Of a stretch of 64,000 nucleotides of DNA, positions 20,343 to 43,531 are shown one piece after another. The DNA lies in assembly GCF_900105615.1 (NCBI RefSeq), contig NZ_LT630003.1:372001-436000 (forward strand), given 5' to 3'. This DNA is from Lacrimispora sphenoides JCM 1415. GTDB taxonomy: Bacteria; Bacillota; Clostridia; Lachnospirales; Lachnospiraceae. The notes under the pieces are model-generated. The model was not told the origin of the DNA. It was given only the letters and a program-made list of their open reading frames with translations, and did no database searches. Positions within the stretch are counted from its first letter, which is position 1. Every line of letters begins with the position of its first letter. A program made the position numbers and the translations under genes.

Positions 20343-20414
20343 AAAATTAGCCGTTCGATGAGCCGATTGGCGAATCGAACTTCCTTAACATAGTTCACAA
20401 AGGAGTGCAAACAG

Positions 20415-21920
20415 GTGGCAGAACAGCAGAATCAAAACCAGAATCAGGTGAAAGAAGAGGACTTAAACCATTTGCTGAAGGTCCGCCGGGAAAAGCTGGC
20501 AGAGCTTCAGGAATCGGGAAAGGATCCGTTTAAAGTTACAAAGTACGATGTTAACGTACACAGCGGTGAAATCAAAGAGCATTATGAAGAATGGGAAGGT
20601 AAGGAAGTATCCATCGCAGGACGTCTTATGTCAAAGCGTGTAATGGGGAAAGCTTCCTTCTGTAATGTACAGGATTTAAAGGGCAATATTCAGTCCTATG
20701 TGGCCAGAGACAGTATCGGAGAAGAGGAATACAAGGAATTCAAGAAGCTGGATATCGGTGATATCGTAGGCATTAAGGGAACTGCGTTTACAACAAAGAC
20801 GGGAGAGGTTTCCATCCATGCTGAGAGCGTTATCCTGCTTACCAAGAGCCTTCAGATTCTTCCGGAGAAATTCCACGGTCTGACCAATACGGACATTCGT
20901 TATAGACAGAGATATGTGGATCTGATCATGAACCCTGAAGTAAGGGATACGTTTGTAAAACGTTCCCAGATCATCAAGTCCATCCGTGACCATCTGGATG
21001 CCCAGGGCTTTATGGAGGTGGAGACACCTATGCTGGTTGCTAATGCAGGCGGCGCTGCGGCAAGACCATTTGAAACTCACTACAATGCTCTTGATGAAGA
21101 TGTAAAGCTGCGTATTTCTTTGGAACTTTACTTAAAGAGACTGATCGTAGGCGGTCTGGAAAGAGTTTATGAAATCGGACGCGTTTTCCGTAATGAAGGC
21201 GTGGATACCCGTCATAACCCAGAGTTTACTTTAATGGAATTATATCAGGCTTATACCGATTACCACGGCATGATGGATCTGGTAGAGGATTTATTCCGGT
21301 CAGTTGCCCTTAAGGTCCTTGGAACGGCTGTGGTGAACTATGATGGTGTGGAAATTGACTTATCAAAGCCATTTGAACGCATTACCATGGTAGATGCTTT
21401 AAAGAAATACAAGGATATTGATTTTACCACCATTCATACGGATGAGGAAGCTAAGGCTCTCGCAGACCAGTACCATGTGGAGTATGGGGCACACCATAAG
21501 AAGGGCGATATTTTAAGCATGCTTTTTGAGGAATTTGTTGAAGAGCATCTGGTACAGCCGACCTTTATTATGGACCATCCGGTAGAGATTTCTCCTCTTA
21601 CCAAGAAAAAGCCTGATGATCCGGAATATACGGAGCGTTTTGAGCTGTTCATTACAAAGCGTGAGATGGCAAATGCTTACTCTGAGTTAAATGATCCTCT
21701 GGATCAGATCGAGCGCTTTAAGGCTCAGGAAGCACTTCTTGCAGCTGGAGACGATGAAGCGAATTCTATGGATGATGATTTTGTAAATGCACTCATGATC
21801 GGTATGCCTCCTACTGGCGGTATTGGTATCGGTATTGACAGGTTTGTTATGCTGCTTACGGATTCTTATGCGATCAGGGATGTGTTGTTGTTCCCGACGA
21901 TGAAGTCACTTGAGAAGTAA
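20415..21920 (+). CDS. lysS: Lysyl-tRNA synthetase, class II
   Basis: Charges tRNA-Lys. The 501-residue protein starts with GTG at 20415, preceded by AAAGGAG. The N-terminal OB-fold anticodon-binding domain ([26 protein letters not shown]) is followed by the class II catalytic core: motif 1 with [10 protein letters not shown], motif 2 with [18 protein letters not shown] and motif 3 with [13 protein letters not shown]. It is the last clearly core gene; base composition falls sharply after it. Confidence 0.97.
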
Positions 21921-21994
21921 TAGATTGCGAAAAGCTAGTATAATCAAGGCTTTTAAGCAAGATGGCTATTTGATTAATTATACTTTTTTACCAA

Positions 21995-22005
21995 TTTTGT
22001 ACCAA
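21995..22005. other. Possible left attachment-site core
   Basis: TTTTGTACCAA matches TTTTGTACTAA at 46113-46123, directly after the integrase gene, at 10 of 11 positions. The two sites bracket the AT-rich element. The match is short and imperfect, so this is only a suggestion. Confidence 0.25.
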
Positions 22006-22032
22006 TTAGAACAGAATTAATGCAACTTAGTA

Positions 22033-22088
22033 AATGAATGAGCTATTATACGACATTGCTTGTATAATAGCTCATTCATTATTTTTTT
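22033..22088 (+). terminator. Strong terminator downstream of lysS
   Basis: A perfect 19-base inverted repeat (22033-22051 and 22062-22080) with a 10-base loop, followed by ATTTTTTT. It either ends lysS transcription or isolates the element from the chromosome. The rest of 21921-22242 holds no gene that I can support. Confidence 0.85.
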
Positions 22089-22181
22089 GTCATATAGGGA
22101 CTATCTATTTGATGTAGAATAAAGAGTAGCAAAGATAGAAAGCTGTGAATAATCTGAAATTGAAAATGGATAAAGAAATGA

Positions 22182-22212
22182 CCCCCTGGTAGGATACAAT
22201 TCTATCAGGGGG
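22182..22212 (-). terminator. Hairpin downstream of Xis-like gene
   Basis: CCCCCTGGTAG pairs with CTATCAGGGGG (one G-T pair), loop of nine bases. It lies just after the stop of the minus-strand gene; the T-tract is broken. Confidence 0.65.
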
Positions 22213-22242
22213 TTATTATGGTGAAAATATAGAGTCATTGCA

Positions 22243-22428
22243 CTACTTCATATTTGCTGCCGCCAAAATATAAGATTCCACAGCTTTTTTGGGAATCTTG
22301 TAAATTCGACCAACTTTAAAGGCAGAAATGGATTTTTCTCTAATTAGCCGATAGGCAACATTCTCACTGATTTTTAAAACTTCACAAAGCTCGTTTAGTG
22401 TTAGGATATCTCCGTAGTCATTAAGCAT
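22243..22428 (-). CDS. Excisionase-family HTH DNA-binding protein
   Basis: A 61-residue protein with a MerR-like/HTH_17 fold: ILTLNELCEVLKISENVAYRLIREKSISAFKVGRIYKIPKKAVESYI. This family includes excisionases and small element regulators. The ATG at 22428 has AAAGGA nine bases upstream; the open frame extends to a TTG at 22446 without support. It is divergent from the mobilization genes and may control them, or serve as a second recombination directionality factor besides the one at 44582. Confidence 0.75.
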   Translation of the reverse strand: MLNDYGDILTLNELCEVLKISENVAYRLIREKSISAFKVGRIYKIPKKAVESYILAAANMK

Positions 22429-22562
22429 TTTATTTTTTCCTTTCAAGTTTATTTGATAATTATTATATAAGATGTTCGTATTCTAATATGTAAAAATGCT
22501 AATAAAGGTCACATGATTTTAGATACTGCTGTTTTATTTTAAATATGGCATAACATATTTGT

Positions 22563-22627
22563 AAGCAAAGATAATAGACTGTCCGACAGTTTTCCTTTGC
22601 TTGCCAGAGTATGTATCCCAGAGATAC
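22563..22627. other. Candidate origin of transfer (oriT)
   Basis: Nested inverted repeats upstream of the mobilization genes: AAGCAAAG (22563-22570) with CTTTGCTT (22595-22602) enclosing ACTGTC-C-GACAGT (22578-22590), followed by GTATC/GATAC (22613-22627). Inverted repeats beside a mobC-relaxase pair are the usual oriT layout. No nick-site consensus was recognised. Confidence 0.4.
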
Positions 22628-22698
22628 AAAAGTATTAGAATCATGAATATTGATATGTAACCAATGAATGTAATAATTTAAAGTAACAGGAGGAAAAA

Positions 22699-22980
22699 AT
22701 GGAAGTTACAAAGAAAATAACTATACGCTGTCCCCAAGATAGATATATAAATCTGAAGGAGAAACTGGAGAAGTTAAATATGACGCAATCAGAATATTTA
22801 AATACTCTGATTGAAAATGACTTAAAGGATAATAATGTTGTATTAAATCAAAAAGAGCTAATATGTGCAATAAGTAGGATATCTACATGTATAAATCACC
22901 TGGGAGAAAATTATCCAGAAGATGAAGATGTCAGGGAATTAAAAGAGGAGGTACGTTCATCATGGCGAATATTATCATAG
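22699..22980 (+). CDS. MobC-like mobilization accessory protein
   Basis: A 93-residue protein with a ribbon-helix-helix-like N terminus (KKITIRCPQDRYINLKEKLEKLNMTQSEYLNTLIENDL). Such proteins bind oriT and help the relaxase to nick. Context supports this: its end overlaps the relaxase start by 19 bases, and AGGAGG precedes its ATG. Family assignment is by pattern and context. Confidence 0.65.
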   Translation: MEVTKKITIRCPQDRYINLKEKLEKLNMTQSEYLNTLIENDLKDNNVVLNQKELICAISRISTCINHLGENYPEDEDVRELKEEVRSSWRILS

Positions 22981-23501
22981 TAAACCAAGATTATCAGAAT
23001 GAAGATGCAATTTATAATACAATTAATTATGTATTTGGCTCTGAATATTATCAGTATTCCGGAGCGGTAGGCTTATTATGGTATCCATCCTTAAGACAAT
23101 GCCAAACTGACAAAGTATTGGGTGTAAATGAAATAGACAGTAATATAAAGTATTTAGCAGATTCGTTTCGAGCTGTAAAAACGGCATATAACAAATTGGA
23201 TGGTCAGCAGGTGGTTCATATTGTAGTGGGATTTGAATGCAAAGATATTATGAATCCGACGTTGGCTTATATTTTTGCAGAACGGTTTGCTAATTACATA
23301 GGGCAGAGATTTCAAGTGATATATGGTGTTCATCAAGGCAGTGATTATAGTAAATATTATCTTCATGTGCATTTTATAATTAATACAATTAGCTATGTGG
23401 ACGGGAATAGATTCTATGATCGGCGAGGAGATTATTATGATCTCGGTAATGCTGCAAAAGAAATCATGCCAAACGCTAAGTGGAATGTCTATAAGAAGTA
23501 A
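22962..23501 (+). CDS. Short relaxase/mobilization nuclease domain protein
   Basis: A 179-residue protein equal to the N-terminal nuclease domain of MobA/VirD2-type relaxases, which nick oriT and attach covalently by tyrosine. The metal-binding histidine motif is visible as HQGSDYSKYYLHVHFIIN followed by GNRFYD. Candidate tyrosines lie in the N-terminal third. The usual C-terminal helicase or long extension is absent: the frame stops right after the domain. Either it is a natural short form or the 3' part has been lost. It overlaps the mobC-like gene, so the two are coupled. Confidence 0.75.
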   Translation: MANIIIVNQDYQNEDAIYNTINYVFGSEYYQYSGAVGLLWYPSLRQCQTDKVLGVNEIDSNIKYLADSFRAVKTAYNKLDGQQVVHIVVGFECKDIMNPTLAYIFAERFANYIGQRFQVIYGVHQGSDYSKYYLHVHFIINTISYVDGNRFYDRRGDYYDLGNAAKEIMPNAKWNVYKK

Positions 23502-23526
23502 AATGAGTCGTTTAATAAAGCATAAA

Positions 23527-23597
23527 GGAAATCTAAGCAGCCGAAGCGTAGGAGCCATGAAGGCGCTACGGAGCGGAGAGAGTCTGCTTAGGTTTCT
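23527..23597 (+). ncRNA. Structured RNA or DNA element after the relaxase gene
   Basis: A 12-pair outer stem (23529-23540 with 23584-23595, one G-T pair) encloses an inner stem CGTAG/CTACG (23547-23551 with 23566-23570) topped by GCC/GGC. The segment is more GC-rich than its surroundings. It could be a regulatory RNA, an attenuator or part of the transfer origin. No known RNA family was recognised. The rest of 23502-23818 shows no supported gene. Confidence 0.4.
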
Positions 23598-23818
23598 TAT
23601 ATGAGCAATGTAACAAGGATATTGATGTATGGATATACTGAAAGAGATTAGTTATATATTATATAAATGGCACTGCTGAGTGCCTCAACAGCTGCACCGG
23701 TTCATAGAAATAGGGTTCGTACTATGTATAGAGATGAACTAAAAAGCATAATTTTAAAATCTCACTAAAATAAAATATATAGTAAATTTTATTTTAAGAA
23801 GCTACGTAAACACTGAAT

Positions 23819-24127
23819 TTATTTTTTCAATCTTTTAGCCAGATATACTAATGCTAAAAGATCACTTTCGGATAGAGAAGAAGCTTCTTCAACTAACTGT
23901 GAAATGAGAATTGGATTTTCTCCATCCGAATCAAAGAAATATTTCGGAGTAACTTCAAGGTATTCGCATATGTATAAAAATTCCGTCATGGACGGCAGTG
24001 ATTTTCCTGTTACAATTCCGTGAATATATGACCGAGAGTGACCTAAATCAAGGCTCATGCGGTGTTCGGAAACATCTTTTTTAATTCTAAGTTCTGTAAT
24101 TTTCTTACGTATATAATCTGCATCCAT
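23819..24127 (-). CDS. XRE-family transcriptional regulator
   Basis: A 102-residue repressor-like protein. The helix-turn-helix lies at SEHRMSLDLGHSRSYIHGIVTGKSLPSMTEFLYICEYLEVTPKYFF. The C-terminal 35 residues are helical. It is divergent from the WYL regulator at 24336 across a 208-base region, so it may repress that promoter or maintain the element's quiescent state. Confidence 0.8.
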   Translation of the reverse strand: MDADYIRKKITELRIKKDVSEHRMSLDLGHSRSYIHGIVTGKSLPSMTEFLYICEYLEVTPKYFFDSDGENPILISQLVEEASSLSESDLLALVYLAKRLKK

Positions 24128-24275
24128 TACTTTACCACCCCTTTGTCTATCATAAGGCTTGATCGTTAATATTGCGCATTTTTAAAAACTCTATTTTAAA
24201 TCATATTGAACGCTATAAGAATCAATGATATACTATTATCATAAAATTTGTGGAAATTTGTAAGATTTTGATAGA

Positions 24276-24304
24276 GTGACATATTCTGTCCATGGTAATA
24301 TGCT
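24276..24304 (+). promoter_or_regulatory. Promoter of the WYL-headed operon
   Basis: GTGACA at 24276-24281 and TATGCT at 24299-24304 with a 17-base spacer, 32 bases before the WYL gene start. Confidence 0.45.
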
Positions 24305-24335
24305 ATAAAATAGTCATAATAGCAAGGAGGGTACG

Positions 24336-25286
24336 ATGGGGAAATATGAATATGATAGAAAACAGGAACGCCTTTTAACGTTGTACACAAAATTAATAGA
24401 AGGAGAGGTTATATGTAAGAAAACCGAAGCAGAATACTTTCATGTCAGCCCCCGTTCATTACAGAGAGATATTGATGATTTGAGAATATTTTTGGCAAAT
24501 CGTTCGGTTAAGACTGGAAGTATGCAGCAACTTATCTATGATAAGAAGTTAAAAGGTTACAGGCTTGTAGACATCCGGAATTTAAAAATGACAAATGGAG
24601 AACTTTTGGCATTGTGTAAGATTCTTTTAGAAAGTCGTTCTCTTACCAAAGAAGAATTTTTTCCACTTATTGAAAAGCTGTTAGAAAATTGTTCTTCTCC
24701 AGAAAATAAGCGGGATATATCTACTCTGATTGCAAATGAAAAGCATCACTACATAGAACCTCATCACCATACAAAAATTATTGATGCAATATGGAATCTT
24801 GGGGAAGCAGTTCGCAATCAAAAGTGTGTAAAAATAGAATATAAGAAGCTTAAAAGCAAAGATACTGTAAATCGGATGGTGAAACCGGTAGGAATTATGT
24901 TTTCAGAATATTATTTTTATTTAATAGCCTTTATCGGTGATAATAAGAAGGAAAGTGAGAGTCAAGTAGATCTATTTCCCGCAATCTATCGAATTGACCG
25001 GATTCAGAATTTTACTGTTTTGGAAAAGCATTTTTTCCTTCCATATAAAGGGAGGTTTGAGGAAGGAGAGTTTAGAAAGAGAGTGCAGTTCATGTATGGA
25101 GGGAGTCTTCAGCGGATTACTTTTCAGTATTCGGGACTTTCTATTGAGGCGGTTTTGGATCGCTTGCCTACAGCGCAGATTTTGGAAGAAAAGGATGGGG
25201 TTTATACGGTAACAGCGGAAGTGTTTGGAAACGGGATTGAAATTTGGCTTAGAAGCCAGGGAGATGTTGTAAAGATTAAAAATTGA
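24336..25286 (+). CDS. WYL-domain transcriptional regulator
   Basis: A 316-residue regulator: N-terminal winged helix (RLLTLYTKLIEGEVICKKTEAEYFHVSPRSLQRDIDDLRIFL), central WYL domain (around VKIEYKKLKSKDTVNRMVKPVGIMFSEYYFYLIAF) and a C-terminal WCX-like segment ending EIWLRSQGDVVKI. WYL proteins often sense nucleic-acid or nucleotide ligands and frequently control phage-defence operons. AAGGAGG precedes the ATG. The gene at 25315 starts 28 bases downstream, so this is probably the dedicated regulator of the next genes. Confidence 0.85.
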   Translation: MGKYEYDRKQERLLTLYTKLIEGEVICKKTEAEYFHVSPRSLQRDIDDLRIFLANRSVKTGSMQQLIYDKKLKGYRLVDIRNLKMTNGELLALCKILLESRSLTKEEFFPLIEKLLENCSSPENKRDISTLIANEKHHYIEPHHHTKIIDAIWNLGEAVRNQKCVKIEYKKLKSKDTVNRMVKPVGIMFSEYYFYLIAFIGDNKKESESQVDLFPAIYRIDRIQNFTVLEKHFFLPYKGRFEEGEFRKRVQFMYGGSLQRITFQYSGLSIEAVLDRLPTAQILEEKDGVYTVTAEVFGNGIEIWLRSQGDVVKIKN

Positions 25287-25314
25287 AAATATATTTGAAA
25301 AGAAGGTGATATCC

Positions 25315-26574
25315 ATGGATGATGAAAAAATTGTTTTTTCATATTCTTCAGCATATGGAGTCTTAGACGATTCTAAAAAAAAGGTACGTTATTATCAAGC
25401 TTTAAAAAATACTCAAAAGCAATTGGAAACCTTAAATATGTCAAGAGGTGGTAAAAATACGAGTGGTTTTGTTTTTGAAGCATTGGATTCTGCGGATACA
25501 ACAGTAAAAGGCATATCTTCTGGGAAAATTCGGATGATGGTCAATGATAATGGGGTTGCTGATTTCACGACTATTAGATCTGATGGAACTACTACTTTAC
25601 AACAAGCTAAAATGGGATATGAAAATAACCCGTATCAAATTCACGTTGATAAATATAAAGAGCAGACATTTGTAATTAATAAGGGAAACACCAAGGTAAA
25701 AACTTATCTTGAAAGAAAAGGGGTTATTGTAGAGGAATCTCCAATTTCAAAAGGCCAAGCTGATCTGACCACTAATATCATGAAAAACGAAGCAAAAGTC
25801 AATCAAAAGATTACTGGTAATAATACAGCACCTATTACGAGTAAATTGGTTGGTATGGTTAATCAAATGCAAGCTGCTCATCAATTTGGTATATCTGCAG
25901 CAAAATGTACTGCTGCATTTACTGCGGGCTTTAGCTTTGGCAATAATGTGTATGAATATATTGAAGGTAATAAAGCTTTTCAAGATTTAATATTAGAAAC
26001 AGCGAAAGACATTACTCTTTCTGCTGGTGCTACCTATGCTTCGACTACAGGTGGATATCTAATTGCTGGTGCTTTAGCGGACACTGTCATAGGAACCACA
26101 ATTGGAACAGTTGCTTCTCAAGCCACAGCAGTCATGGTTAGCACAAGCATTGGTTCAACATTGGTTTCTGTAGGCTCAATAATAGTATCAATGTCAGCGG
26201 CCATGGGGCCTGCATTTATTTTTGGGATGGCAATAGGTACAGGATATTCTACTATAAAGCTATTGAAAGACAGTTCCGAAAAAATTAGTTATAAGATGTC
26301 AGGTATTAATCATGTAATTAATGAAGCGCTAGAGAGCATGGAATATGCTCAAAAAGAGGTGGCTACTTTGATTGATGAGACTTTTAGAATTTGGGATTGT
26401 AAGTTTGAAGCTAGTTTTAGACAAATCCTCAAAGCTACTCTTGATAATGATTTTGAGGAAATGTCATCTGGTTTAAACACCATTTTAGAGGTATTTGGAG
26501 AGTCTGTTATGTTTAAGACCATAGATGAATTTGATGATTTTTTCTTTGACGATAATACTATATTAAATTTATAA
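25315..26574 (+). CDS. Unrecognised protein with glycine/alanine-rich membrane segments
   Basis: No family recognised. The ATG at 25315 is chosen because AGAAGG precedes it; three more codons upstream are open. The 419-residue product has a soluble, beta-rich N-terminal half (to about residue 180), then a run of Ala/Gly/Thr/Ser-rich hydrophobic helices (about 195-320: GISAAKCTAAFTAGFSFG, TGGYLIAGALADTVIGTT, VSVGSIIVSMSAAMGPAFIF), and a charged C-terminal tail with an acidic end. The pattern resembles pore-forming or glycine-zipper proteins. It is followed 18 bases later by another such gene. Confidence 0.6.
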   Translation: MDDEKIVFSYSSAYGVLDDSKKKVRYYQALKNTQKQLETLNMSRGGKNTSGFVFEALDSADTTVKGISSGKIRMMVNDNGVADFTTIRSDGTTTLQQAKMGYENNPYQIHVDKYKEQTFVINKGNTKVKTYLERKGVIVEESPISKGQADLTTNIMKNEAKVNQKITGNNTAPITSKLVGMVNQMQAAHQFGISAAKCTAAFTAGFSFGNNVYEYIEGNKAFQDLILETAKDITLSAGATYASTTGGYLIAGALADTVIGTTIGTVASQATAVMVSTSIGSTLVSVGSIIVSMSAAMGPAFIFGMAIGTGYSTIKLLKDSSEKISYKMSGINHVINEALESMEYAQKEVATLIDETFRIWDCKFEASFRQILKATLDNDFEEMSSGLNTILEVFGESVMFKTIDEFDDFFFDDNTILNL

Positions 26575-26592
26575 CTGTATTGGAGGAAGGAT

Positions 26593-27429
26593 ATGATAGA
26601 TCCTATAACTGGCGCCATTGTAGCAGGTGTCCTGGGGAAAGTAGTCAATGATTTTTGTCAAAGTGATAAACTTAGTTCCCAAGCATCAGAAAAAAACTTA
26701 AAATCAATGAATCAAATTGGAGAAGCCAGAGCGGCACAACGTCTAAAACAGGAAGAGACAAGGCAGGCAATGATAAGATTAGGCAATCGTAAAAAAGGAA
26801 TATTGTCTAGTTCTATGAAAAAATTTTTAGGTGTTTATGAACAATTAAAAAAAATAAATTTTGTAGTTACAGATGGAATTGCTGAACTATCAAATTTGCC
26901 TTCCACTTTAACTGAAGAAGTTTCTGGTCAAATTTTATATGTCAGTACCCACATGACTGAGAAAGAGCTGATCTCAACTTTTGTTTTTAATTCTCTCATT
27001 TGGGGTGTGGTAGGGGGAATCAGCACTTCTATTAAAAAGGACTCTCAAAGAAAATTAGATATGGCACAGGCTAGGGCTAAGCAAGCCAGAGCAATAGCTG
27101 AACAGGCGACTACGATAGGTATGGCTTATGAAGCAGTCTTTGAACGTGCAAGCAGGATTACAGATGTATTAACAAAATTAAATTTACTTTTTCTAAAAAG
27201 CCTATCAAATACACAGGATATTATAGAAAAGAATGGAACTGATAAAAATAATTATTCTTTGCAAGAACGTGAAAGCTTGGCTACTTGTATTAATTTGGCA
27301 AAGGCAGTTAAATCTATAATTGATACTCCGCTATTGGATGAATCTGGTAAAATTACCATTCAGTCTTTAAAAGCAATTGAAACTGGTCAGAACTATCTTC
27401 AAAAGATTAATTGTGAAATGAATCAATAA
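26593..27429 (+). CDS. Unrecognised protein with glycine-zipper-like N terminus and coiled coil
   Basis: No family recognised. The 278-residue product begins MIDPITGAIVAGVLGKVVND, a short glycine-zipper-like stretch, and has a second hydrophobic segment (ISTFVFNSLIWGVVGGISTSI, about 135-155) followed by a long Ala/Gln/Arg coiled coil (MAQARAKQARAIAEQATTIG). It has a strong GGAGG and lies 18 bases behind the preceding gene, so the two are surely one operon and may form a complex. A terminator follows at 27509. Confidence 0.6.
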   Translation: MIDPITGAIVAGVLGKVVNDFCQSDKLSSQASEKNLKSMNQIGEARAAQRLKQEETRQAMIRLGNRKKGILSSSMKKFLGVYEQLKKINFVVTDGIAELSNLPSTLTEEVSGQILYVSTHMTEKELISTFVFNSLIWGVVGGISTSIKKDSQRKLDMAQARAKQARAIAEQATTIGMAYEAVFERASRITDVLTKLNLLFLKSLSNTQDIIEKNGTDKNNYSLQERESLATCINLAKAVKSIIDTPLLDESGKITIQSLKAIETGQNYLQKINCEMNQ

Positions 27430-27508
27430 GTTATGAGAAGAAACTCCGCTATTAATTTAAATACGCTAAAAAAGATAACAATATTATCTGCCACTAAATA
27501 ACTAATAT

Positions 27509-27532
27509 GGGCTTGTTGTAGAAGCCTTTTTA
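27509..27532 (+). terminator. Terminator after the two membrane-protein genes
   Basis: GGCTT/AAGCC stem with a seven-base loop followed by TTTTT. It separates the gene at 26593 from that at 27611 and could be partly read through. Confidence 0.65.
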
Positions 27533-27610
27533 ACAGTTTGTTTTTTTCGTTCATACAAACGTATTGAGTGTATTTAAAAATAATTCTAATGTAAGAAGGA
27601 GATTTATATT

Positions 27611-29173
27611 ATGGGATCACATTCACAGACATATTACGGAAGAAGAGTCTCTATTGCAACGGCAGGAAGTTCTGATAGAGTTGCGAGAGAAGCTCTTGCA
27701 AGATCATTTAAACTCACAAAAGTACCACCATTAAATATTGAAGTAACAAAAGATGCCAATGATACTAATTGGGAGAAATTTACATTTAATGGCGGCGGAA
27801 TAAGATATTCAGAAATCATCAATAGTATTACCTGCTTTGATGCAAATGCAAAGATACTTGAGGTTGAGGATGATATGATTGGACTTGGTATTAATACGGA
27901 TGAAGATCTTGAGTACATTATGAAGTATTATGAGACTGAGCTGAATAAAAAACTAAAAGAGGTTTCTACAGATCAGCCTGAATTCTTGGTGACTATAGAA
28001 GAGCTAAAAGTCTTACCAGAGGTTTTGTTAGAAGATGAGATAAGTATACCAGAAAACGAAGATATGATAAAAGAAAATGCAAATGAAATATCTGATCATT
28101 CTCCAAAGTTTATAAGTAAAAAGGTTAAGGAAAAACCAATTGTTGATAGTTTGCAAGCATCTCACAGGATTAGAATTGATTCTGGCTGTATTGCATGTGG
28201 AATTTGTCTGGCTTCTAGTAATTTTTTTCAAGAGAATACAAATGGTACTGTTAAGGTTTGTGGAGCAGGTATCATAGATGCGATAGAACTTCCTACTGCT
28301 CAACAAATCATAGATGATTGTCCTGTACATGTTATTCGCTTGGAAACGATAAAGGGAAAATTAAGACAAGAAGTTGAAATGCTAATTCATGATAAATTAG
28401 AGAATTATAGTTTGCCTATTCCTGTACGTTCAGAATTTGAATTTGACAAAAAAAATATACATGTTTCTATACCATGGTCTCAAAATGAGAGAAAATATAT
28501 TTATTCAAGCGATAATCGAGCAAAGGCTGCAGGGCTAGAGGAATTTAACCGATTAATGTTTACGCAAAGGGAGAATATCATTCAACAAATTTTTGTTGAA
28601 TATAAGGCTAATAAACTTCTTCCTTATTCTCGTTATGAGAAAACCAGCAATAATTTTTATTTTAAGGTTGAACAACAAATCAGTGAGCTACTGGAAAATG
28701 TAAGCGCAGAAGTAAAAACATTGAATTCTCATATAAAGATTTCTAAAGATTTTTCTAATTTTACATTGAAGTTTAATCCAAATGAAGCCGACGTGATAGG
28801 TTATTTTAAAACGGGTTTGGAGATATTGCAATCCAATCGAGTATTACAATATCTTTCAGGAGAGTACTATTCCCTTTCTTCCTATGAAATTTATTTTAAT
28901 ACTGATGATTCAGAGGAATATGTGGGTACGGGACTGTTTGGAAATGATAAATACATTACTAAATACTGTTTTTATAATCTAAAAGAGGCTTTTGAAACAT
29001 TGGCTAAGGATATTACTGATGGCTGTCAAATAAAAGGATCCGAAGCAGTTGAAGATGCATATGGAATGCTAAGGTCTTTTTTTGAAGAAGCGGAAAAAGA
29101 TATCAAGCAGCAGCTTTTATTAAAAGCTTCACAGTTAAAGCAAGCAATAAAATCGGTTGAAGCATGTATTTAG
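27611..29173 (+). CDS. Unrecognised protein with a single 4Fe-4S ferredoxin motif
   Basis: A 520-residue protein of unknown function. The centre holds a ferredoxin-like motif CIACGICLA (Cys193, Cys196, Cys199) with a later CP (Cys237), the ligand pattern for one 4Fe-4S cluster. The N-terminal 180 residues (MGSHSQTYYGRRVSIATAG) and the C-terminal 280 residues (SIPWSQNERKYIYSS, then long helices) match nothing I recognise. An electron-transfer or redox-sensing part inside a larger scaffold is likely. It has AGAAGGAG upstream. It follows the WYL-headed genes and may belong to the same cargo system despite the intervening terminator. Confidence 0.6.
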   Translation: MGSHSQTYYGRRVSIATAGSSDRVAREALARSFKLTKVPPLNIEVTKDANDTNWEKFTFNGGGIRYSEIINSITCFDANAKILEVEDDMIGLGINTDEDLEYIMKYYETELNKKLKEVSTDQPEFLVTIEELKVLPEVLLEDEISIPENEDMIKENANEISDHSPKFISKKVKEKPIVDSLQASHRIRIDSGCIACGICLASSNFFQENTNGTVKVCGAGIIDAIELPTAQQIIDDCPVHVIRLETIKGKLRQEVEMLIHDKLENYSLPIPVRSEFEFDKKNIHVSIPWSQNERKYIYSSDNRAKAAGLEEFNRLMFTQRENIIQQIFVEYKANKLLPYSRYEKTSNNFYFKVEQQISELLENVSAEVKTLNSHIKISKDFSNFTLKFNPNEADVIGYFKTGLEILQSNRVLQYLSGEYYSLSSYEIYFNTDDSEEYVGTGLFGNDKYITKYCFYNLKEAFETLAKDITDGCQIKGSEAVEDAYGMLRSFFEEAEKDIKQQLLLKASQLKQAIKSVEACI

Positions 29174-29601
29174 TGATTTAAAACCAGACTTCATAAGCTA
29201 TATGGTAATTATTTAATCGAGCAATTACATATGTATTTATCATGATTTGATTTTGGATATCGAAATTTCATTTCTGGAACTGGAGAAGTTTGAATAGAAC
29301 AATTACCAAAAAATACTTACAGTGAAGATACAAAACAATTCATCCAGGATTTCAACAGATGCAGACTAATTATTACGCGATGATTCTATTTGGAAGTAAA
29401 TATAAGTAATTTCATTTATATATTATCTTATTGAATAAGTAAAAAACTATTCAATAAAAATAATTAGTGAGGTTTTATATGAGGAGAAGAAAACGTTATG
29501 AAGTGGTATCTGGAATTTACGAGAGGGGGATTCCACCCTAAAGAAAAGTAAGCGTAAGCTATTGTGTGGTTAAAAGAGCCATAATATAAAGGAGACAAAA
29601 G
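29174..29601. other. AT-rich intergenic region with inverted repeat
   Basis: No supported gene of normal size. TTATTGAATA (29428-29437) and TATTCAATAA (29448-29457) form a 10-base inverted repeat that may terminate transcription from the left. A 17-codon reading frame (29497-29550) has a good GGAGAAG site and could be a leader peptide, but this is weak. Confidence 0.4.
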
Positions 29602-31617
29602 ATGAGAAAAAATTATAAAAGGTTGATTGGTACAGTTTGTAGTACTGTGGTGCTGTGCTCTGCCATAGGGTTTAATGCATTTGCTGATAAATCTGAGGGC
29701 TTTAAAGAGGATGGAGTCCCGATAGCAACAGGAAGCACAGCTTCACCTAATATAACCACACCCGAAAGTGGTACAGAAGAGATTCGAGGAGAGCAAGAAG
29801 ATGCAACAAGTAATACTGAATCTGGAGAGGCAAAACCGAAAGAAACAGAGACAGAAACAACAGTACAGGAAAAAAATGTGTTAAATAATAAGACTTTAAA
29901 GGATAAACAATTCCCCACTTATACAAAAGGCGATATTAATGCAGGTCTATTGGAAGAAACGCCCCAATTTATACCTGTTACAAATCCACATTGGATATCA
30001 GATCAACCAGGAATGGCAACGTGGGATGAATTAGAATCAGAACAACAGCAAAATGTAAAGGGAATTTTTCTGGTTATTTATAAGGATGGTAAAAAGATCG
30101 GACAAAGAAATGCTAATGTTGGATATGCAACAAGTTTGAAACTATTTGAAAGTTTTGATGGGGATGGATCCTATCAGTTTAAAGCTGTATACCGCATGTC
30201 GGATCAATATGACGGAGAAGAGGATTATTTATCTGATTTGAGTGATAGTTTTGAATATTCACTTACCGGAAAGACCATGCCTATTCCGACCGGATTCCAC
30301 TGGAATAAAGACGGCAGCGTTACATGGAACTCTATTAATACGTCTGATTTACCAGGCTGGGACACCAATAGCTTCATAACTTATAGCGTCTCATTTTATG
30401 AGGGCAATGCCGATAAACCTTGGGATACATGGTTTATGAATGCAGCTCCCAGTGTACGCCAGATTCTAAAGATGCAACCTGGAAAATCATACAGATTTCG
30501 TATTTCAGCAACAGGAGATGGACTTAACTATAACAACAGCGAATTGTCTGATTTTAGTGAATTCTTCGTTATGCCTGTTTCAGAGTCTACAGTAAAAGTT
30601 AAACTGGATGCTCTTAACCAAGTTGGGGATGCAAAATTAAGTGCGACAATTAATAATTTCGCTTTAACTGATGATGAACGAGAAGCGATGAAAACTGCCA
30701 TCCAAAACAATGAATCTGCTGCGGAGCAACTAAAGGAATTGGAAAATCGTTATAAGGCAGCCAATGGAAAAAATATTTTTATTCAAGCAGAAAGCAGTAT
30801 CGTAGACAGCAGCCAGATTAACATAGCAGGTGCGGTCCTTAACAATGCGTCCAAGATAATGTTCACACCCACCCAGTCAACGGATACCACATTAAACCAA
30901 TACCGCAATCAGGTATCTATGAATATATCTCTTGACACCAATGAATTGAAATTTCCGGTACTGATTACTATGCCTGTTCCTGATAATATGAATGTAGAAA
31001 AAGTGAAAATTTATCATTACCATGAATCTGGACCTACTGAAATAATTATCCCAAGGATTTTTGTTGACAATGGCGTAAAAAAAGTAGAGTTTGCTGTTAG
31101 TGGTTTCAGTGTATTTACCTTTGTAGATACATCGTCCGCTAACACTTCGTCTGGAGGAAGTTCATCCGGAGGAAGTTCGTCTGGCGGCGGTGGAGGAATG
31201 ACTTCATCAAAAACAACTTCTGGTGTTCCTAGTTCCGCTCCTGCGCTTACTGGAATATGGGTAAAGAATGAGACAGGTTGGTGGTTTGAAAAGACAGATA
31301 AAAGCTATCCCAAAAATCAATGGGCTAAAATTAACAATACTGTTTATCGCTTTAATGAATCTGGATATATGGTGGAGGGCTGGTTTGTACTAAATGGAAA
31401 ATGGTATTACCTTATCCCGTCTTCTGGGGCTATGGCCACTGGCTGGGTAGATATTCAAAATAAATGGTATTATCTTAACAATGATGGAAGTATGGCTGTT
31501 GGTTGGATCAAAATTGCAGATAAATGGTATTATTTGAATGCAGATGGAAAAATGGCAGCAAATACCGTGACACCAGATGGTTATCATGTAGACGTAAATG
31601 GAGTATGGATTCAATAA
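29602..31617 (+). CDS. Secreted cell-wall-binding repeat protein
   Basis: A 671-residue exported protein. Residues 1-28 form a signal peptide (basic start, LIGTVCSTVVLCSAIGFNAFA with cleavage likely after AFA). A Glu/Thr-rich linker follows, then two fibronectin-III-like segments (about 110-330), a beta-rich domain, a Gly/Ser linker, and C-terminal choline-binding-type repeats (about 550-671) with the WYYL-N-x-DG-x-MA-x-GW pattern, for example DKWYYLNADGKMA. Such repeats hold proteins at the cell surface. Its role in a mobile element is unknown; adhesion or mating-pair contact is possible. It has its own terminator. Confidence 0.82.
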   Translation: MRKNYKRLIGTVCSTVVLCSAIGFNAFADKSEGFKEDGVPIATGSTASPNITTPESGTEEIRGEQEDATSNTESGEAKPKETETETTVQEKNVLNNKTLKDKQFPTYTKGDINAGLLEETPQFIPVTNPHWISDQPGMATWDELESEQQQNVKGIFLVIYKDGKKIGQRNANVGYATSLKLFESFDGDGSYQFKAVYRMSDQYDGEEDYLSDLSDSFEYSLTGKTMPIPTGFHWNKDGSVTWNSINTSDLPGWDTNSFITYSVSFYEGNADKPWDTWFMNAAPSVRQILKMQPGKSYRFRISATGDGLNYNNSELSDFSEFFVMPVSESTVKVKLDALNQVGDAKLSATINNFALTDDEREAMKTAIQNNESAAEQLKELENRYKAANGKNIFIQAESSIVDSSQINIAGAVLNNASKIMFTPTQSTDTTLNQYRNQVSMNISLDTNELKFPVLITMPVPDNMNVEKVKIYHYHESGPTEIIIPRIFVDNGVKKVEFAVSGFSVFTFVDTSSANTSSGGSSSGGSSSGGGGGMTSSKTTSGVPSSAPALTGIWVKNETGWWFEKTDKSYPKNQWAKINNTVYRFNESGYMVEGWFVLNGKWYYLIPSSGAMATGWVDIQNKWYYLNNDGSMAVGWIKIADKWYYLNADGKMAANTVTPDGYHVDVNGVWIQ

Positions 31618-31634
31618 CAGATTTCATAGGTTAC

Positions 31635-31669
31635 AAAAAGGGTATGGCTCAATTAGTCATACCCTTTTT
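31635..31669 (+). terminator. Rho-independent terminator
   Basis: AAAAAGGGTATGGCT pairs with AGTCATACCCTTTTT (one mismatch or G-T near the loop), T-tract included. It closes the cell-wall-binding protein gene. Confidence 0.9.
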
Positions 31670-31750
31670 GCATTATTGGTTGATTACGTACCTGTTTTTG
31701 AACAGCCATTAAGTTGTAACTATTAACATTTGTGAATGTCAATGAAAATA

Positions 31751-31886
31751 TTTACCACCTGACATTTTGAAAGTTTACCAGGTTGATACCGAATTAGTTT
31801 ACCATTCCAACGATTTTGACATTCAAAAAGTTTACCACTCGTGACACTGAAAAAGTTTACCATTTGACAGTGAAAGAGTTTACCAC
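31751..31886 (-). repeat. IS21 terminal multiple repeats (transposase-binding sites)
   Basis: Six copies of a TTTACCA core, mostly preceded by AAG or AGA and spaced 22-34 bases. The same core occurs in inverse orientation at the other end of the element. Repeated transposase-binding sites at both ends are a hallmark of IS21. Confidence 0.8.
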
Positions 31887-32081
31887 TTTGCTTCTGATAA
31901 AGGGGAATACCCTGGAGCATTCCCCATATGTTATTACATTGTAACAACGACATCTGTCAATTCATCAAGTGCCTGGCAGTAATCATCGATTTCCTGTTAC
32001 AGTTCTTTGATCTCCATCTGCTGATCAAAAATGGTTTCAAGCGCCTCTTGGTATTTGATATACAACTGGTTGTATGGTAGG

Positions 32082-32876
32082 TTATTCATGAACAGATTCC
32101 TCCTTCCCGTTTTCTGATACCACAGCGGCATGTTCTGCACGGTAAGGATTATCCGAATTCATATTTAATACATGTGACCGAAAAGTAAGCCTGTCAATTA
32201 ATGCAGTTACCATGGTCTGGTTTTCAAACATGGTAGTCCATTCGGAGAACCGTAGATTTGTTGAAACGATGACACTTTTCCGCTCTGCACGGTCTGCCAC
32301 GACTTTGAATAGTAGCTCTGACTGATGCCGGTTAAAGGTCAGATAGCTCAGCTCATCAATAATAAGTAATTCAGCTTTGGATATCTGTTTTTCCAATCGA
32401 ACCAACCGATGATTGTCCTGAGCTTCAATGAGCTCATTGGAAAGATTAGCTGCTGTATAGAACTTTACATTCATGCCCTGCATACAGGCCTTCACGCCAA
32501 GCCCTATGGACAGGTGGGTCTTGCCGGTTCCAGGATTGCCTATCATTACGATATTCTGTTTCTTTGTAACAAAGTCGCAGGAGGCAAGTTCTTTTAAAAA
32601 TGCTTCGTCCATGTGTTCGAAGCGGGAAAGATCCAGTTCATCCATGGTCTTTATATAAGGGAAAGAAGCCACTTTTATTTTTCGTTTGCGAGTGCTTTCC
32701 TGTCTGGAATCCAGTTCCAGTTTCATCAACTGTATGAGGAAATACTCATAGCCCTGATTCTTATCTAACTGTCGTATAACATCGGCGTAATTGTTGAACA
32801 TCGGTGTCCGCAACTGCTTAGAATACATTTCAATGGTTTGTACCTGCAATTCTTTCAATGTATAGCCACCCCACAT
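32082..32876 (-). CDS. istB: IS21-family ATP-binding helper protein
   Basis: A 264-residue DnaA/DnaC-like AAA+ ATPase that assists the transposase in target selection. The Walker A motif is GNPGTGKTHLSIGLG and Walker B is LLIIDELSYL; a sensor region ADRAERKSVIVSTN follows. The length is normal and no interruption is seen, so it looks functional. It overlaps the end of istA by 22 bases, as usual in the family. Confidence 0.93.
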   Translation of the reverse strand: MWGGYTLKELQVQTIEMYSKQLRTPMFNNYADVIRQLDKNQGYEYFLIQLMKLELDSRQESTRKRKIKVASFPYIKTMDELDLSRFEHMDEAFLKELASCDFVTKKQNIVMIGNPGTGKTHLSIGLGVKACMQGMNVKFYTAANLSNELIEAQDNHRLVRLEKQISKAELLIIDELSYLTFNRHQSELLFKVVADRAERKSVIVSTNLRFSEWTTMFENQTMVTALIDRLTFRSHVLNMNSDNPYRAEHAAVVSENGKEESVHE

Positions 32877-34333
32877 TTCTCATCGTATTTGGTGAGATCC
32901 ATCTGAGTAACCGGAATTTCATTACTTAGATATACGATATTTGATTCTGGGTTCTCATGGAGCTGGCTCCGTATCATATCCACGGACGGCACGATGTTTT
33001 TTGGAAGCTGTTCCCTGATGGAAAGGATTCTTTCTTCGCCATAGTCAACGCATAGACGCAGGAGCTTTACCATCTCCTTATTGCCGCCCGGAAGCAGTCT
33101 TCCCCAGTCGAGCAGTTCCTTGGTCACATTTCGTCTGACAGGCTTTGCCTGAAATACAGCGCGTGGCTTTCTTTCCAGAAGGTCGATGTAATGCTCCAAA
33201 CGGTATTCTATTTTACCGGATCCATAGAGCCGACAAAAGGTTGAAGCCAACTCCCCCTCATGGAAGATACATACCTCATTGGCATAGCCTTTTACAGTCA
33301 TCTGTTTACGTAGATAGCGGACAGGGACCGAGTAATCATTCTTATCAAACCGGAGGGTTGAATAATCTCCAACTGTTGGAGTAGCAATACGGCTGGTATC
33401 GTAGCGGTAAGCTGGGATCTGCTTTAAATAGTACCATTCTTCCTCATAAGCTTCCTTTACGGTGCAGGAGCGTGAATCTACCTTGTGAGCGTTCCGATAA
33501 TTCAGACAATCCTTGATAAGATGTTCATTCAACTCTGCAAGGTTAGCGACTCTTGGAACCGGCACCATGAAATTTCGGCGGGCATAACCCACCAGATTTT
33601 CTACCAGACCTTTTTCATTACCACTGGCAATGTTACAGAAATCTGTTTGGAAAGCATAGTGGGCGGCAAATGACCTATACCCTTTCGTAGCTCTGGCATG
33701 CAGACCAAAACCGTCACTTACAGCTACCTTGGCATTGTCAAAGATGAGCCTTTTAGGAATGCCCTTGAAATAATCAAACATTCTCTGCTGGGCTTCCAGA
33801 AAGGACTCCAGATTCTGTGAATAAAATGCCTGTACAAAAATGTCGCAGCTGTAGCAGAGCCTTCCGCAGAAGAAGTTGATTTTTGTTTTCTTACCATCCA
33901 GATAGATGGTGGCTTCACCCCAGTCGATTTGAATGGCATCGCCTGCATCGTATTCCAATGGGATATCGGCCTGGGGAGGGACAAGATGTTCAGCCCGTAG
34001 ATTTCGTACTACTTCCCGAACTGTAGAGTAGGAACCAGTAAAGTTTTTTTCTACAACAAGCCGGTCATATATTCGTTTGGCAGTATGCTGTTGTTTGGAC
34101 AGCTTTTCTTCCATGTCCTGCTTTATGCAGGCAATGATAAAGCTTTTGATGTCATTTGTAATGACGTTGTTTGTGCGGGTGTAAGATTTGCGCACATTTG
34201 GATGTGTACTGCCTTCGCAATACTTTTTGACGGTCTGTCTGGAAATGCCTAGACGTTTGGCAATAGACCGCTGGGATTCACCCTCCGTATGGAGAGTGCG
34301 GATTTGGGAGTATAAATCCACTTCAATAATCAC
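32855..34333 (-). CDS. istA: IS21-family transposase
   Basis: DDE transposase of about 492 residues. The N-terminal HTH (GESQRSIAKRLGISRQTVKKYCEG) binds the terminal repeats; the catalytic domain shows IQIDWGEATIYLDG (first Asp), RLIFDNAKVAV (second Asp) and NEKGLVENLVGYARR (Glu). A GTG at 34333 follows AAGGAG at a spacing of about 11; the frame is open up to a TTG at 34372. The gene appears intact. Confidence 0.92.
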   Translation of the reverse strand: MIIEVDLYSQIRTLHTEGESQRSIAKRLGISRQTVKKYCEGSTHPNVRKSYTRTNNVITNDIKSFIIACIKQDMEEKLSKQQHTAKRIYDRLVVEKNFTGSYSTVREVVRNLRAEHLVPPQADIPLEYDAGDAIQIDWGEATIYLDGKKTKINFFCGRLCYSCDIFVQAFYSQNLESFLEAQQRMFDYFKGIPKRLIFDNAKVAVSDGFGLHARATKGYRSFAAHYAFQTDFCNIASGNEKGLVENLVGYARRNFMVPVPRVANLAELNEHLIKDCLNYRNAHKVDSRSCTVKEAYEEEWYYLKQIPAYRYDTSRIATPTVGDYSTLRFDKNDYSVPVRYLRKQMTVKGYANEVCIFHEGELASTFCRLYGSGKIEYRLEHYIDLLERKPRAVFQAKPVRRNVTKELLDWGRLLPGGNKEMVKLLRLCVDYGEERILSIREQLPKNIVPSVDMIRSQLHENPESNIVYLSNEIPVTQMDLTKYDEKCGVAIH

Positions 34334-34523
34334 CTTTCTTTCATCTCCTTGTAAGATTTTTGTACTTCTCAATCTTACAGGAATTTATTTCAAGGTGGTA
34401 AACTAATTCAGTGTCAAATAGTGTTGAAGTGGTACACTTTTATAATATCATTTACAAACATTCATGGATATATATTATCTCCTTGAATATTAATCAATAG
34501 ATCAATTCAAGGAGGTAATTTTT

Positions 34524-35456
34524 ATGTCAGCAAATGTAGAAACAATGTTTTACACAAGAGAAAGACCCTGGCACGGATTGGGGAAGATGGTAATGGAAGC
34601 TCCTACATCAAAAGAAGCACTGGCTTTGGCGGGACTGGACTGGCAGGTAATACAAAAGCCGATTGTAACAGAAGATGACATTCCCATTCCAGGCTTTAAG
34701 GTAAACATCCGAAATATCGATGAAAAAATTTTGGGAGTCGTTACAGATCGCTATAAAGTGGTTCAAAATGAGGAGGCTTTTGCTTTTACAGATGAGCTTC
34801 TTGGCGAAGGAGTCACCTATGAAACTGCAGGGAGTCTTCAGGAAGGGAGGCGTACATGGATATTAGCAAAACTCCCTCACCGCTATATTATCTCTGGGGA
34901 TGAGGCTATTCCGTATCTTGTTTTTATGAATAGCCATGATGGAACTGGGGCGATTAAAGCTGCCATGACTCCTATCCGGGTGGTTTGTAATAACACACTA
35001 AACCTTGCACTAAAAAATGCAAAACGGATATGGTCCACAAACCATACTGGAAATATTTCCAGAAAATTAGATGATGCCAGAAATACATTGTTTTATGCAC
35101 ATCTTTATATGGGAGAGTTAGGAAAAGAAATTGACAGGTTGAATCAGATCAAATTATCAGAAAGACAGGTGTATGAATATATTGATGCTTTATTTCCACT
35201 CTTAGAGCAGCCAACCGAACAGCAAAAAAAGAACCTGATGCAGATGAAAGAAGATATGAAGCTTCGATATTTTGAAGCACCGGATCTTGCCCATATAGGA
35301 AAAAACGCCTATCGGTTTCTTAATTCTGTCTCTGACTTCGCAACGCATGCTAAACCACTTCGCGAACGTGCCAATTATAAAGAAAGTCTGTTTTCCCGAA
35401 CCGTAGAAGGAAATGCTATGATTGACAGAGCCTATGAACTGGTACGGGCATCTTAA
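34524..35456 (+). CDS. DUF932 phage/plasmid-like protein
   Basis: A 310-residue DUF932 protein (phage/plasmid-like TIGR03299 type), recognised by the start METMFYTRERPWHGLGK, DWQVIQKPI, TDRYKVVQNEEAFAFTDEL and the MTPIRVVCNNTLNLAL core. Members are common on plasmids, ICEs and phages, often next to RecT and YqaJ genes, with no proven biochemical role. An AAGGAGG lies before the ATG. It starts 60 bases from the right end of the IS21 element, which may have separated it from its original promoter. Confidence 0.85.
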   Translation: MSANVETMFYTRERPWHGLGKMVMEAPTSKEALALAGLDWQVIQKPIVTEDDIPIPGFKVNIRNIDEKILGVVTDRYKVVQNEEAFAFTDELLGEGVTYETAGSLQEGRRTWILAKLPHRYIISGDEAIPYLVFMNSHDGTGAIKAAMTPIRVVCNNTLNLALKNAKRIWSTNHTGNISRKLDDARNTLFYAHLYMGELGKEIDRLNQIKLSERQVYEYIDALFPLLEQPTEQQKKNLMQMKEDMKLRYFEAPDLAHIGKNAYRFLNSVSDFATHAKPLRERANYKESLFSRTVEGNAMIDRAYELVRAS

Positions 35457-35679
35457 GTGTCCTGAAAAGTGGCCCAATCTTCAACAGTGCAAGGACTATT
35501 CTGAGATATGCAGTCATTTTAGTGTGGAAGAAATGAATCGTTTTGAAGAACAATTAACAGAATATTTATGTATGGGTGATATAACGGAAGAATTTTTGCT
35601 TGTCGTTCCAAGGGTAGTGTGCTGGTATGAAGGGCTGCTGGAAACAAAGGATTTTATAGAAGAAGCAATATTGTTATGA
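35434..35679 (+). CDS. Small hypothetical protein of the recombination module
   Basis: An acidic protein of about 81 residues with no recognised domain (MNWYGHLKCPEKWPNLQQC at the start, three cysteines in the first half). The ATG at 35434 overlaps the DUF932 gene by 23 bases; a TTG four codons upstream is an alternative. The coupled position between DUF932 and RadC-like genes supports it as real. Confidence 0.5.
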   Translation: MNWYGHLKCPEKWPNLQQCKDYSEICSHFSVEEMNRFEEQLTEYLCMGDITEEFLLVVPRVVCWYEGLLETKDFIEEAILL

Positions 35680-35680
35680 G

Positions 35681-35704
35681 GGGATACCATGAAAGCGGTA
35701 TCCC
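35681..35704 (+). promoter_or_regulatory. Intercistronic hairpin before the RadC-like gene
   Basis: GGGATACC (35681-35688) and GGTATCCC (35697-35704) form a perfect 8-base stem followed by TGATTATTTTAG. It covers an in-frame ATG at 35689, so that codon is probably not the start and the hairpin is an attenuator or weak terminator. Confidence 0.6.
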
Positions 35705-35730
35705 TGATTATTTTAGAGAGGGAAAGATTA

Positions 35731-43530: not shown

Positions 43531-43531
43531 T

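What the first reader, a model, noticed from the sequence alone, without database searches (positions are those of the whole stretch)
24276..29173. WYL-regulated cargo of three unrecognised genes: two membrane-segment proteins and a 4Fe-4S protein
A WYL regulator, the type often placed in front of defence operons, is followed by two tightly spaced genes (18-base gap) whose products carry Gly/Ala-rich hydrophobic helices and a coiled coil, then by a 520-residue protein with a single CxxCxxC...CP cluster motif. I recognise no family for the last three. A redox-cluster protein together with two possible pore-forming proteins could be a sensor plus membrane effector, a combination I do not know as a named system. 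A terminator at 27509 makes the membership of the third gene less certain.
Basis: partly seen in the sequence, partly recalled or inferred. Interest (0 to 1): 0.8.

Follow-up and report, generated by a model that had tools for sequence, protein, structure and literature searches.

The report
Nuclease–ferredoxin defence-like operon
A four-gene bacterial operon, found again in the same order in several distant bacteria, pairs a probable membrane-bound DNA-cutting protein with an iron-sulphur protein under a WYL-type regulator; it looks like a redox-linked version of an untested candidate virus-defence system.

Summary
P2 (25315), P3 (26593) and ferredoxin protein P4 (27611) occur in that order in 11 of 13 ferredoxin loci, window included (12 distinct). 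P3-P4 are adjacent in 13 of 13; WYL is directly upstream in 6. So the doubtful third gene belongs. P2-P3 are distant relatives of PDC-M09B/A, an untested PADLOC candidate. The three ferredoxin-type P4s scanned match no PADLOC model.

P2 has a swappable head: HNH/GmrSD_C-like in 10 loci, PD-(D/E)XK-like in the window; its tail is glycine-rich and hydrophobic. P4 is a one-cluster ferredoxin (four Cys in 13 of 13) fused to a helical domain that elsewhere follows a kinase or stands alone beside WYL. In relative G1015 the same flanks enclose WYL, a CxxCxxCC protein, a PDC-M09A-like and a P2-like protein: one subtype swapped for another. QatABCD lies downstream.

Best reading: a WYL-controlled nuclease/membrane effector gated by an iron-sulphur protein, probably anti-phage. 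Architecture shown; function inferred.

The parts
24336..25286 (+). P1: WYL-domain regulator (316 aa), same subfamily directly upstream of P2 in other loci
   Evidence: Pfam WYL 1.2e-10; subfamily directly upstream of P2 in L029, L057, L059, L061, L066, L067; 48% identical over 251 residues to the WYL of the swapped allele in L096
25315..26574 (+). P2: putative effector, PD-(D/E)XK-like head + Gly-rich hydrophobic tail (419 aa)
   Evidence: one-frame homologues before P3 in 11 of 13 ferredoxin loci incl. window and in part of the PDC-type loci; relatives match PDC-M09B
25465..25611 (+). P2 head motif G51-x3-E55 ... D83 ... Q97-x-K99 (PD-(D/E)XK-like, inferred)
   Evidence: same pattern in L028, L029, L033, L034, L035, L096; helix 50-68 and strands 72-76, 82-87, 93-96 in a LOW-confidence model (mean pLDDT 44)
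26032..26244 (+). P2 Gly/Ala-rich hydrophobic region (residues ~240-310), putative membrane insertion
   Evidence: hydropathy; family alignment
26593..27429 (+). P3: helical/coiled-coil partner (278 aa), PDC-M09A-related, without the Gly-rich hairpin
   Evidence: ferredoxin-type P3s form one side of a branch, 12 rows, 100/100; PDC-M09A only E=0.0039 for the window copy
27611..29173 (+). P4: ferredoxin-helical fusion (520 aa)
   Evidence: adjacent to P3 in 13 of 13 loci; model mean pLDDT 71
27611..28156 (+). P4 N-terminal extension (residues 1-182), alpha/beta domain plus linker, absent from the 10 other ferredoxin-type P4s aligned
   Evidence: alignment; low-confidence model
28160..28351 (+). 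P4 single-cluster ferredoxin domain (residues 184-247; Cys 193, 196, 199, 237)
28361..29167 (+). P4C: helical C-terminal domain with a beta hairpin (residues 251-519), not named in the libraries searched
   Evidence: also fused to a protein kinase (L063) and stand-alone beside WYL (L064, L065)
27510..27531 (+). weak terminator-like hairpin between P3 and P4
   Evidence: not better than shuffles
23708..29429 (.). cassette interval that is replaced by another subtype in relative G1015 (L096)
   Evidence: flanks 20393-23707 (95%) and 29430-30310 (86%) shared, interior not, apart from a 213-column 69% match inside the WYL gene

Best explanation
The locus is a four-gene, horizontally exchanged conflict module, most likely anti-phage. 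SHOWN: WYL-P2-P3-P4 is a recurring operon; P2 has a swappable head and a glycine-rich hydrophobic tail; P4 joins a one-cluster ferredoxin to a domain that elsewhere is joined to a kinase; the core pair P2-P3 is shared, at a distance, with PADLOC candidate PDC-M09. INFERRED: the WYL protein, a ligand-responsive regulator, keeps expression low until infection or stress. P2 is the effector: its nuclease head (PD-(D/E)XK-like here, HNH/GmrSD_C-like in the other ferredoxin loci with an intact P2) is tethered to or delivered at the membrane by the tail, with P3 as assembly/coiled-coil partner. P4 is the gate: its [4Fe-4S] cluster reads cellular redox, iron or damage state (or electron supply), and P4C passes that state to P2-P3. 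When the cluster is oxidised, lost or reduced during infection, the complex is released, cuts nucleic acid and perhaps perturbs the membrane, stopping phage or killing the cell. Some other subtypes have a CxxCxxCC metal-binding protein and/or TerB in the companion place.
For: Gene order: P2-P3-P4 in 11 of 13 ferredoxin loci incl. window, P3-P4 in 13 of 13, WYL directly upstream in 6. P2-P3 relate to PDC-M09B/A; the ferredoxin-type P2 of L060 itself matches PDC-M09B at 5.2e-18. HNH/GmrSD_C above Pfam cut-off in L026, L059, L066, 3 of 7 ferredoxin-type P2 scanned. Ferredoxin: 13 of 13 keep four Cys, fold match. Swap at one site with a PDC-M09A-type allele that has a CxxCxxCC protein and no P4. 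P4C fused to kinase. Type I RM beside L009 and L059, AbiL/PDC-M38A-like ATPase beside L027; QatABCD downstream in the window.
Against: I found no experiment on this system or on PDC-M09 in the papers searched. The window's own P3 barely matches and its P2 misses the PDC-M09 models. The PD-(D/E)XK call rests on a motif and a model of pLDDT 44; Pfam sees no nuclease in the window P2. 4 of the 7 ferredoxin-type P2s scanned do not reach the GmrSD_C cut-off, three of them without any GmrSD_C match. Nothing shows what P4 senses; a ferredoxin could equally donate electrons or be structural. The window P3-P4 gap of 181 bases with a weak hairpin may uncouple P4. WYL was not found directly upstream of P2 in 7 of 13 ferredoxin loci. 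P2 is missing or split in 2 of 13 (L027, L062), and of the 17 PDC-type loci the P2 profile matched only 5. No PADLOC match for 5 of the 10 neighbours scanned, which I had picked by eye. Qat begins about 18 kb away. The family is rare: besides the window, 3 of 397 phylum genomes hold P4C.
Confidence: 0.5

Rival explanations
1. P4 is not a sensor but a working electron carrier: it feeds electrons to an unknown redox step (maturation, activation or protection of P2-P3), and defence is carried by P2-P3 alone.
For: The domain is an ordinary single-cluster ferredoxin fold, best matches being electron-transfer ferredoxins; PDC-type loci show the P3-type gene, often with P2, and no ferredoxin-P4C protein among the ORFs printed around it.
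Against: I noticed no reductase or redox enzyme recurring beside it in the ORF lists, though not every neighbour was scanned; P4C also occurs without ferredoxin, once on a kinase, which suits signalling better than electron transport.
Confidence: 0.2
2. A toxin-antitoxin-like or island-maintenance module: P2 is a toxic nuclease/membrane protein, P3 and/or P4 its inhibitors, and the unit mainly stabilises the mobile island that carries it.
For: Close spacing, mobile context (NikA-like and relaxase N-terminal ORFs 22699-23501), patchy occurrence: this P2 in 1 of 25 genus genomes, swapped cargo at the same site.
Against: Four genes with a ligand-type WYL regulator and a separate redox protein are unlike a two-gene TA pair. 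P3-P4 persist in L027, where no P2 was found, and in L062, where P2 is split over frames; this is neutral if P3/P4 are antitoxins.
Confidence: 0.15
3. Stress-response (metal/redox) module unrelated to phage, akin to the Ter-type networks that combine TerB, metal-binding and DNA-processing proteins (recalled).
For: CxxCxxCC proteins in 5 and TerB in 7 of 26 PDC-type loci examined, ferredoxin in the other clade.
Against: Some neighbours match defence models: type I RM, AbiL-like, Qat at a distance; kinase-P4C matches PD-T4-6 kinases and the L064 neighbour of P4C matches CARF-HEPN models.
Confidence: 0.15

Closest known systems
PADLOC candidate PDC-M09 (PDC-M09A + PDC-M09B)
   Same: P3 and P2 are distant homologues of A and B; same adjacency; WYL nearby in several PDC-type loci
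   Different: No PADLOC model matched the three ferredoxin-type P4s scanned (window, L056, L059); P3 lacks the Gly-rich hairpin; ferredoxin-type P3s are a separate group in the tree. No paper in the held library names PDC-M09.
GmrSD / type IV restriction HNH domain (PF07510)
   Same: P2 heads of L026, L059, L066 score above its cut-off
   Different: Window P2 has no such head; in P2 the domain is fused to a membrane-type tail
BrxR-type WYL regulators of defence islands
   Same: WYL regulator in front of a defence-like operon; 164 of 347 BrxR homologues co-localise with defence systems downstream (PMC9122601, abstract and section 22 read)
   Different: Window WYL subfamily not compared to BrxR sequence, structure or operators here
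Ferredoxin-type [4Fe-4S] region in some BREX/Ssp PAPS-reductase-like proteins
   Same: a defence-linked protein with a ferredoxin-type cluster region (PMC12839542, passages only)
   Different: there part of a DNA-modification enzyme; no P2, P3 or P4C mentioned in the passages seen
Bunzi / TerB-containing systems
   Same: companion proteins in L028 and L029 carry a region matching BnzA (3.5e-9, 1.5e-5) and TerB partners recur
   Different: Neither is among the four genes of the window operon
Small ferredoxins (Fer4_13/Fer4_15)
   Same: fold and four Cys
   Different: fused to P4C; window copy below Pfam cut-offs

Membership tests
PDC-M09 | PDC-M09A match | tested here: inconclusive
   window P3 E=0.0039; relatives up to 5.4e-27
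PDC-M09 | PDC-M09B match | tested here: not met
   window P2: none at E<=1; ferredoxin-type L060 P2 matches at 5.2e-18
PDC-M09 | A and B genes adjacent | tested here: met
   P2-P3 18 bases apart
WYL regulators | WYL domain above Pfam cut-off | tested here: met
   41.7 bits vs 21.8
WYL regulators | DNA-binding HTH | tested here: inconclusive
   HTH_11 E=0.12, below cut-off
Single-cluster ferredoxin | four cluster cysteines | tested here: met
   13 of 13 loci
Single-cluster ferredoxin | ferredoxin fold | tested here: met
Single-cluster ferredoxin | Pfam cut-off | tested here: not met
   Fer4_13 18.1 vs 24.5 bits in window; met by L026 Fer4_15 38.6 vs 22.4
PD-(D/E)XK nucleases | E, D and (D/E/Q)xK on an alpha-beta-beta-beta core | tested here: inconclusive
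   motif in 7 loci incl. window; model pLDDT 44; no Pfam match
GmrSD_C HNH | DH...N...N..K motif / PF07510 | tested here: not met
   absent from window P2; present in relatives
Dynamin-type stalk (P4C) | fold of the stalk | tested here: inconclusive
Anti-phage system | protection against phage | not testable with these tools
   needs a plaque assay

The most novel reading that the evidence does not exclude
A redox-gated immune system: an iron-sulphur ferredoxin acts as the infection sensor that licenses a membrane-tethered nuclease with exchangeable cutting heads, under WYL control; P4C is a general adaptor joining different sensors (ferredoxin, kinase) to such effectors.
Probability: 0.3. Interest if true: 0.9.

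Novelty: new variant of a known kind. Interest (0 to 1): 0.72.

Why it matters
If true, an iron-sulphur protein would be a core part of a bacterial immune module, raising the directly testable question whether cells detect infection by a redox or iron change. It also gives an untested catalogue candidate (PDC-M09) a fuller anatomy: effector with exchangeable heads, partner, metal- or redox-binding companion and WYL regulator. And it gives a natural allele swap at one site in two close relatives as a ready-made comparison.

Tried and rejected
Viral contigs: five scans found no relative. Phage records: two protein searches, with a P3 and a P4 relative, found none; P2 was not searched there. So phage-structural or prophage origin is not supported. 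Plasmids: eight protein searches; searches found nothing, searches found the same single record, an Azospirillum plasmid with WYL-P2-P3.

Rejected: polymorphic secreted toxin (there the N terminus is constant and the C terminus variable, recalled; here the reverse; no secretion signal was sought). Conjugation role: no family match for P2-P4 above a cut-off. Rfam: nothing at gathering score in 21900-32000. Fold search for P2: not run, since the model has pLDDT 44. Dynamin-stalk likeness of P4C: kept only as a weak lead. P2-P3 homology to each other: hhalign probability 11%, rejected. WYL operators: one 13-base palindrome upstream (24166-24185), not tested further. The CxxCxxCC and TerB profiles were trained on some of the loci counted (L029, L033, L096; L029, L031, L033), so the independent finds are L125, L126 and L032, L124, L125, L126. 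My HNH pattern missed L056, L057, L059, L067 because of shorter spacing; those four (and L066, same genes as L067) were read by eye from the alignment and the ORFs. 18 short ferredoxin-only matches and six short matches were not followed. Papers: searches (PDC-M09, 0 papers; 0); only listings were seen except the abstract and section 22 of PMC9122601 and passages of PMC12839542 and PMC12988326.
Full report
What is there. The four ORFs stand as described: WYL 24336-25286, P2 25315-26574, P3 26593-27429, P4 27611-29173. They lie in a low-G+C stretch that begins just after lysS, behind a NikA-like gene and a 179-residue relaxase N-terminal ORF (22699-23501). Pfam sees WYL (41.7 bits, cut-off 21.8) and, below cut-off, a single-cluster ferredoxin in P4; P2, P3 and P4 have no family above a curated cut-off in Pfam or NCBIfam and nothing convincing in PHROGs.

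The operon recurs. A search of 391 genomes of the class with P4 gave 8 genomes at E<=0.001; besides the window only one, G300, is a long homologue, and there P2, P3 and P4 follow one another, next to type I restriction genes. P3 as a two-row profile gave 8 of 398 phylum genomes, own included. P4 as a profile gave 30 of 250 genomes of another class: 9 full-length, 3 with the C-terminal domain but no ferredoxin, 18 short ferredoxin-like matches that I did not follow. All 9 full-length ones have P3 directly upstream. In total 13 ferredoxin loci, window included, 12 distinct since L066 and L067 carry the same genes. P3-P4 adjacency 13 of 13; P2 before P3 as one frame in 11 (no P2 found in L027, split in L062). 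WYL directly before P2 in 6: window, L057 (there two ORFs match WYL), L059, L061, L066, L067; not in the other 7. P3-P4 gaps are -52 to 36 bases elsewhere, 181 in the window.

Relation to a known candidate. Relatives of P3 match PADLOC PDC-M09A (L034 5.4e-27, L029 2.7e-22, L096 5.1e-21) and relatives of P2 match PDC-M09B (L060 5.2e-18, L033 5.5e-16, L031 1e-14). The window's own P3 scores 0.0039 and its P2 has no PDC-M09B match, so it is not filed as a member; the link runs through intermediates. In a tree of 26 P3 proteins the 12 ferredoxin-type rows form one side of a branch with support 100/100. PDC names are candidates from a guilt-by-embedding approach, most without experimental validation (PMC12988326, passages seen). 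No paper in the held library names PDC-M09.

P2. The C-terminal half is the conserved part, with a Gly/Ala-rich hydrophobic stretch. The N-terminal half is exchanged. Ten ferredoxin-type P2s have an HNH-like DH...N...N..K motif (five by pattern, five by eye); three of the seven scanned pass the GmrSD_C cut-off (L026, L059, L066). The window instead has G-x3-E55...D83...Q97-x-K99, the pattern seen in PDC-type L028, L029, L033, L034, L035 and L096 and, by eye, in Azospirillum. I infer a PD-(D/E)XK-type nuclease head; the predicted helix-strand order fits but the model is poor (pLDDT 44).

Subtype swap. Of 25 genomes of the genus, only the window's has a match to this P2 (the diverged P2-like protein of G1015 is missed by that query), and only one other, G1015, has the left flank at length (94%). 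In G1015 (L096) window 20393-23707 and 29430-30310 are matched at 95% and 86%, but in between lie WYL, a CxxCxxCC protein (PF03692, 30.3 bits, cut-off 23), a PDC-M09A-type protein and a P2-like protein (P2 profile 2e-19, no PDC-M09B match). The two WYL proteins are 48% identical over 251 residues; the G1015 frame as called begins at about residue 58-68 of the window's and so lacks its N-terminal part. So two subtypes, one with a ferredoxin and one with a CxxCxxCC protein, occupy the same place. Among 26 PDC-type loci examined (L028-L035, L096, L121-L137), CxxCxxCC proteins lie within three ORFs of the pair in 5 and TerB in 7; some of these trained the profiles. In the 17 loci the P2 profile matched a neighbour in 5; a 440-510 residue protein of unknown kinship often stands there in the rest.

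Surroundings. The window holds QatABCD (46975-51938) and a type II methylase (52904) downstream. Among ten neighbours of ferredoxin loci that I picked by eye, five match PADLOC models (type I RM beside L009 and L059, AbiL/PDC-M38A-like ATPase beside L027) and five do not. On an Azospirillum ramasamyi plasmid an annotated WYL gene and P2 and P3 homologues follow one another, with different downstream partners.

Mechanism. Shown: operon recurrence, exchangeable P2 heads, ferredoxin domain, subtype swap. Inferred: WYL control, nuclease activity, membrane action, gating by the cluster, anti-phage purpose. The WYL regulator BrxR is a repressor, and its family is linked to defence systems (PMC9122601, abstract and one section read). 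I put 0.5 on the gated-effector defence reading, 0.2 on P4 as plain electron carrier, 0.15 each on island maintenance and on a non-phage stress role.

Verdict. I found no description of the ferredoxin arm in the papers searched; a ferredoxin-type cluster region has been noted in some BREX/Ssp enzymes, a different setting (PMC12839542, passages).

Noticed in passing
window 46975-62504: QatA-QatB-QatC-QatD (E 1.5e-166 to 4.2e-68), a type II cytosine methylase, and an McrB/McrC-like pair at 59135-62504 (named from recall; PADLOC gives only REase_II 3.5e-14 for the first and nothing for the second).
   Followed up: partly
L096 (G1015), junction matching window 30310 / 49778: The relative keeps QatC-QatD and the methylase at 99.6% but lacks, in the stretch fetched, the window's 30310-49778, which includes QatA and nearly all of QatB.
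   Followed up: no
L063 8646-10217: Protein kinase fused to the P4C domain, without a P2-P3 pair beside it (only a weak P2-profile hit, 9e-5, about 7 kb away).
   Followed up: partly
L064 756-4861, L065 8348-12449: Stand-alone P4C between a same-subfamily WYL gene and a protein with CARF-HEPN-type PADLOC matches (scanned for L064 only).
   Followed up: partly
L138 5003-10822: Azospirillum plasmid: WYL, P2, P3, a hypothetical protein and a PD-(D/E)XK family protein in a row.
   Followed up: partly
L027 7360-12070: P3-P4 without a P2; a 241-residue protein and an AbiL/PDC-M38A-like ATPase lie upstream instead.
   Followed up: no
L028 6955-7452, L029 9004-9705: Companion proteins with a region resembling Bunzi BnzA.
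   Followed up: no
window 27611-28156: 182-residue N-terminal extension of P4 with a low-confidence ferredoxin-like alpha/beta fold, absent from the 10 other ferredoxin-type P4s aligned.
   Followed up: partly
window 29602-31617: Protein with choline-binding repeats just downstream of the cassette; its first part is shared with G1015.
   Followed up: no
window 32082-34372: Insertion-sequence pair that looks like IS21 istB/istA (recalled, not scanned).
   Followed up: no
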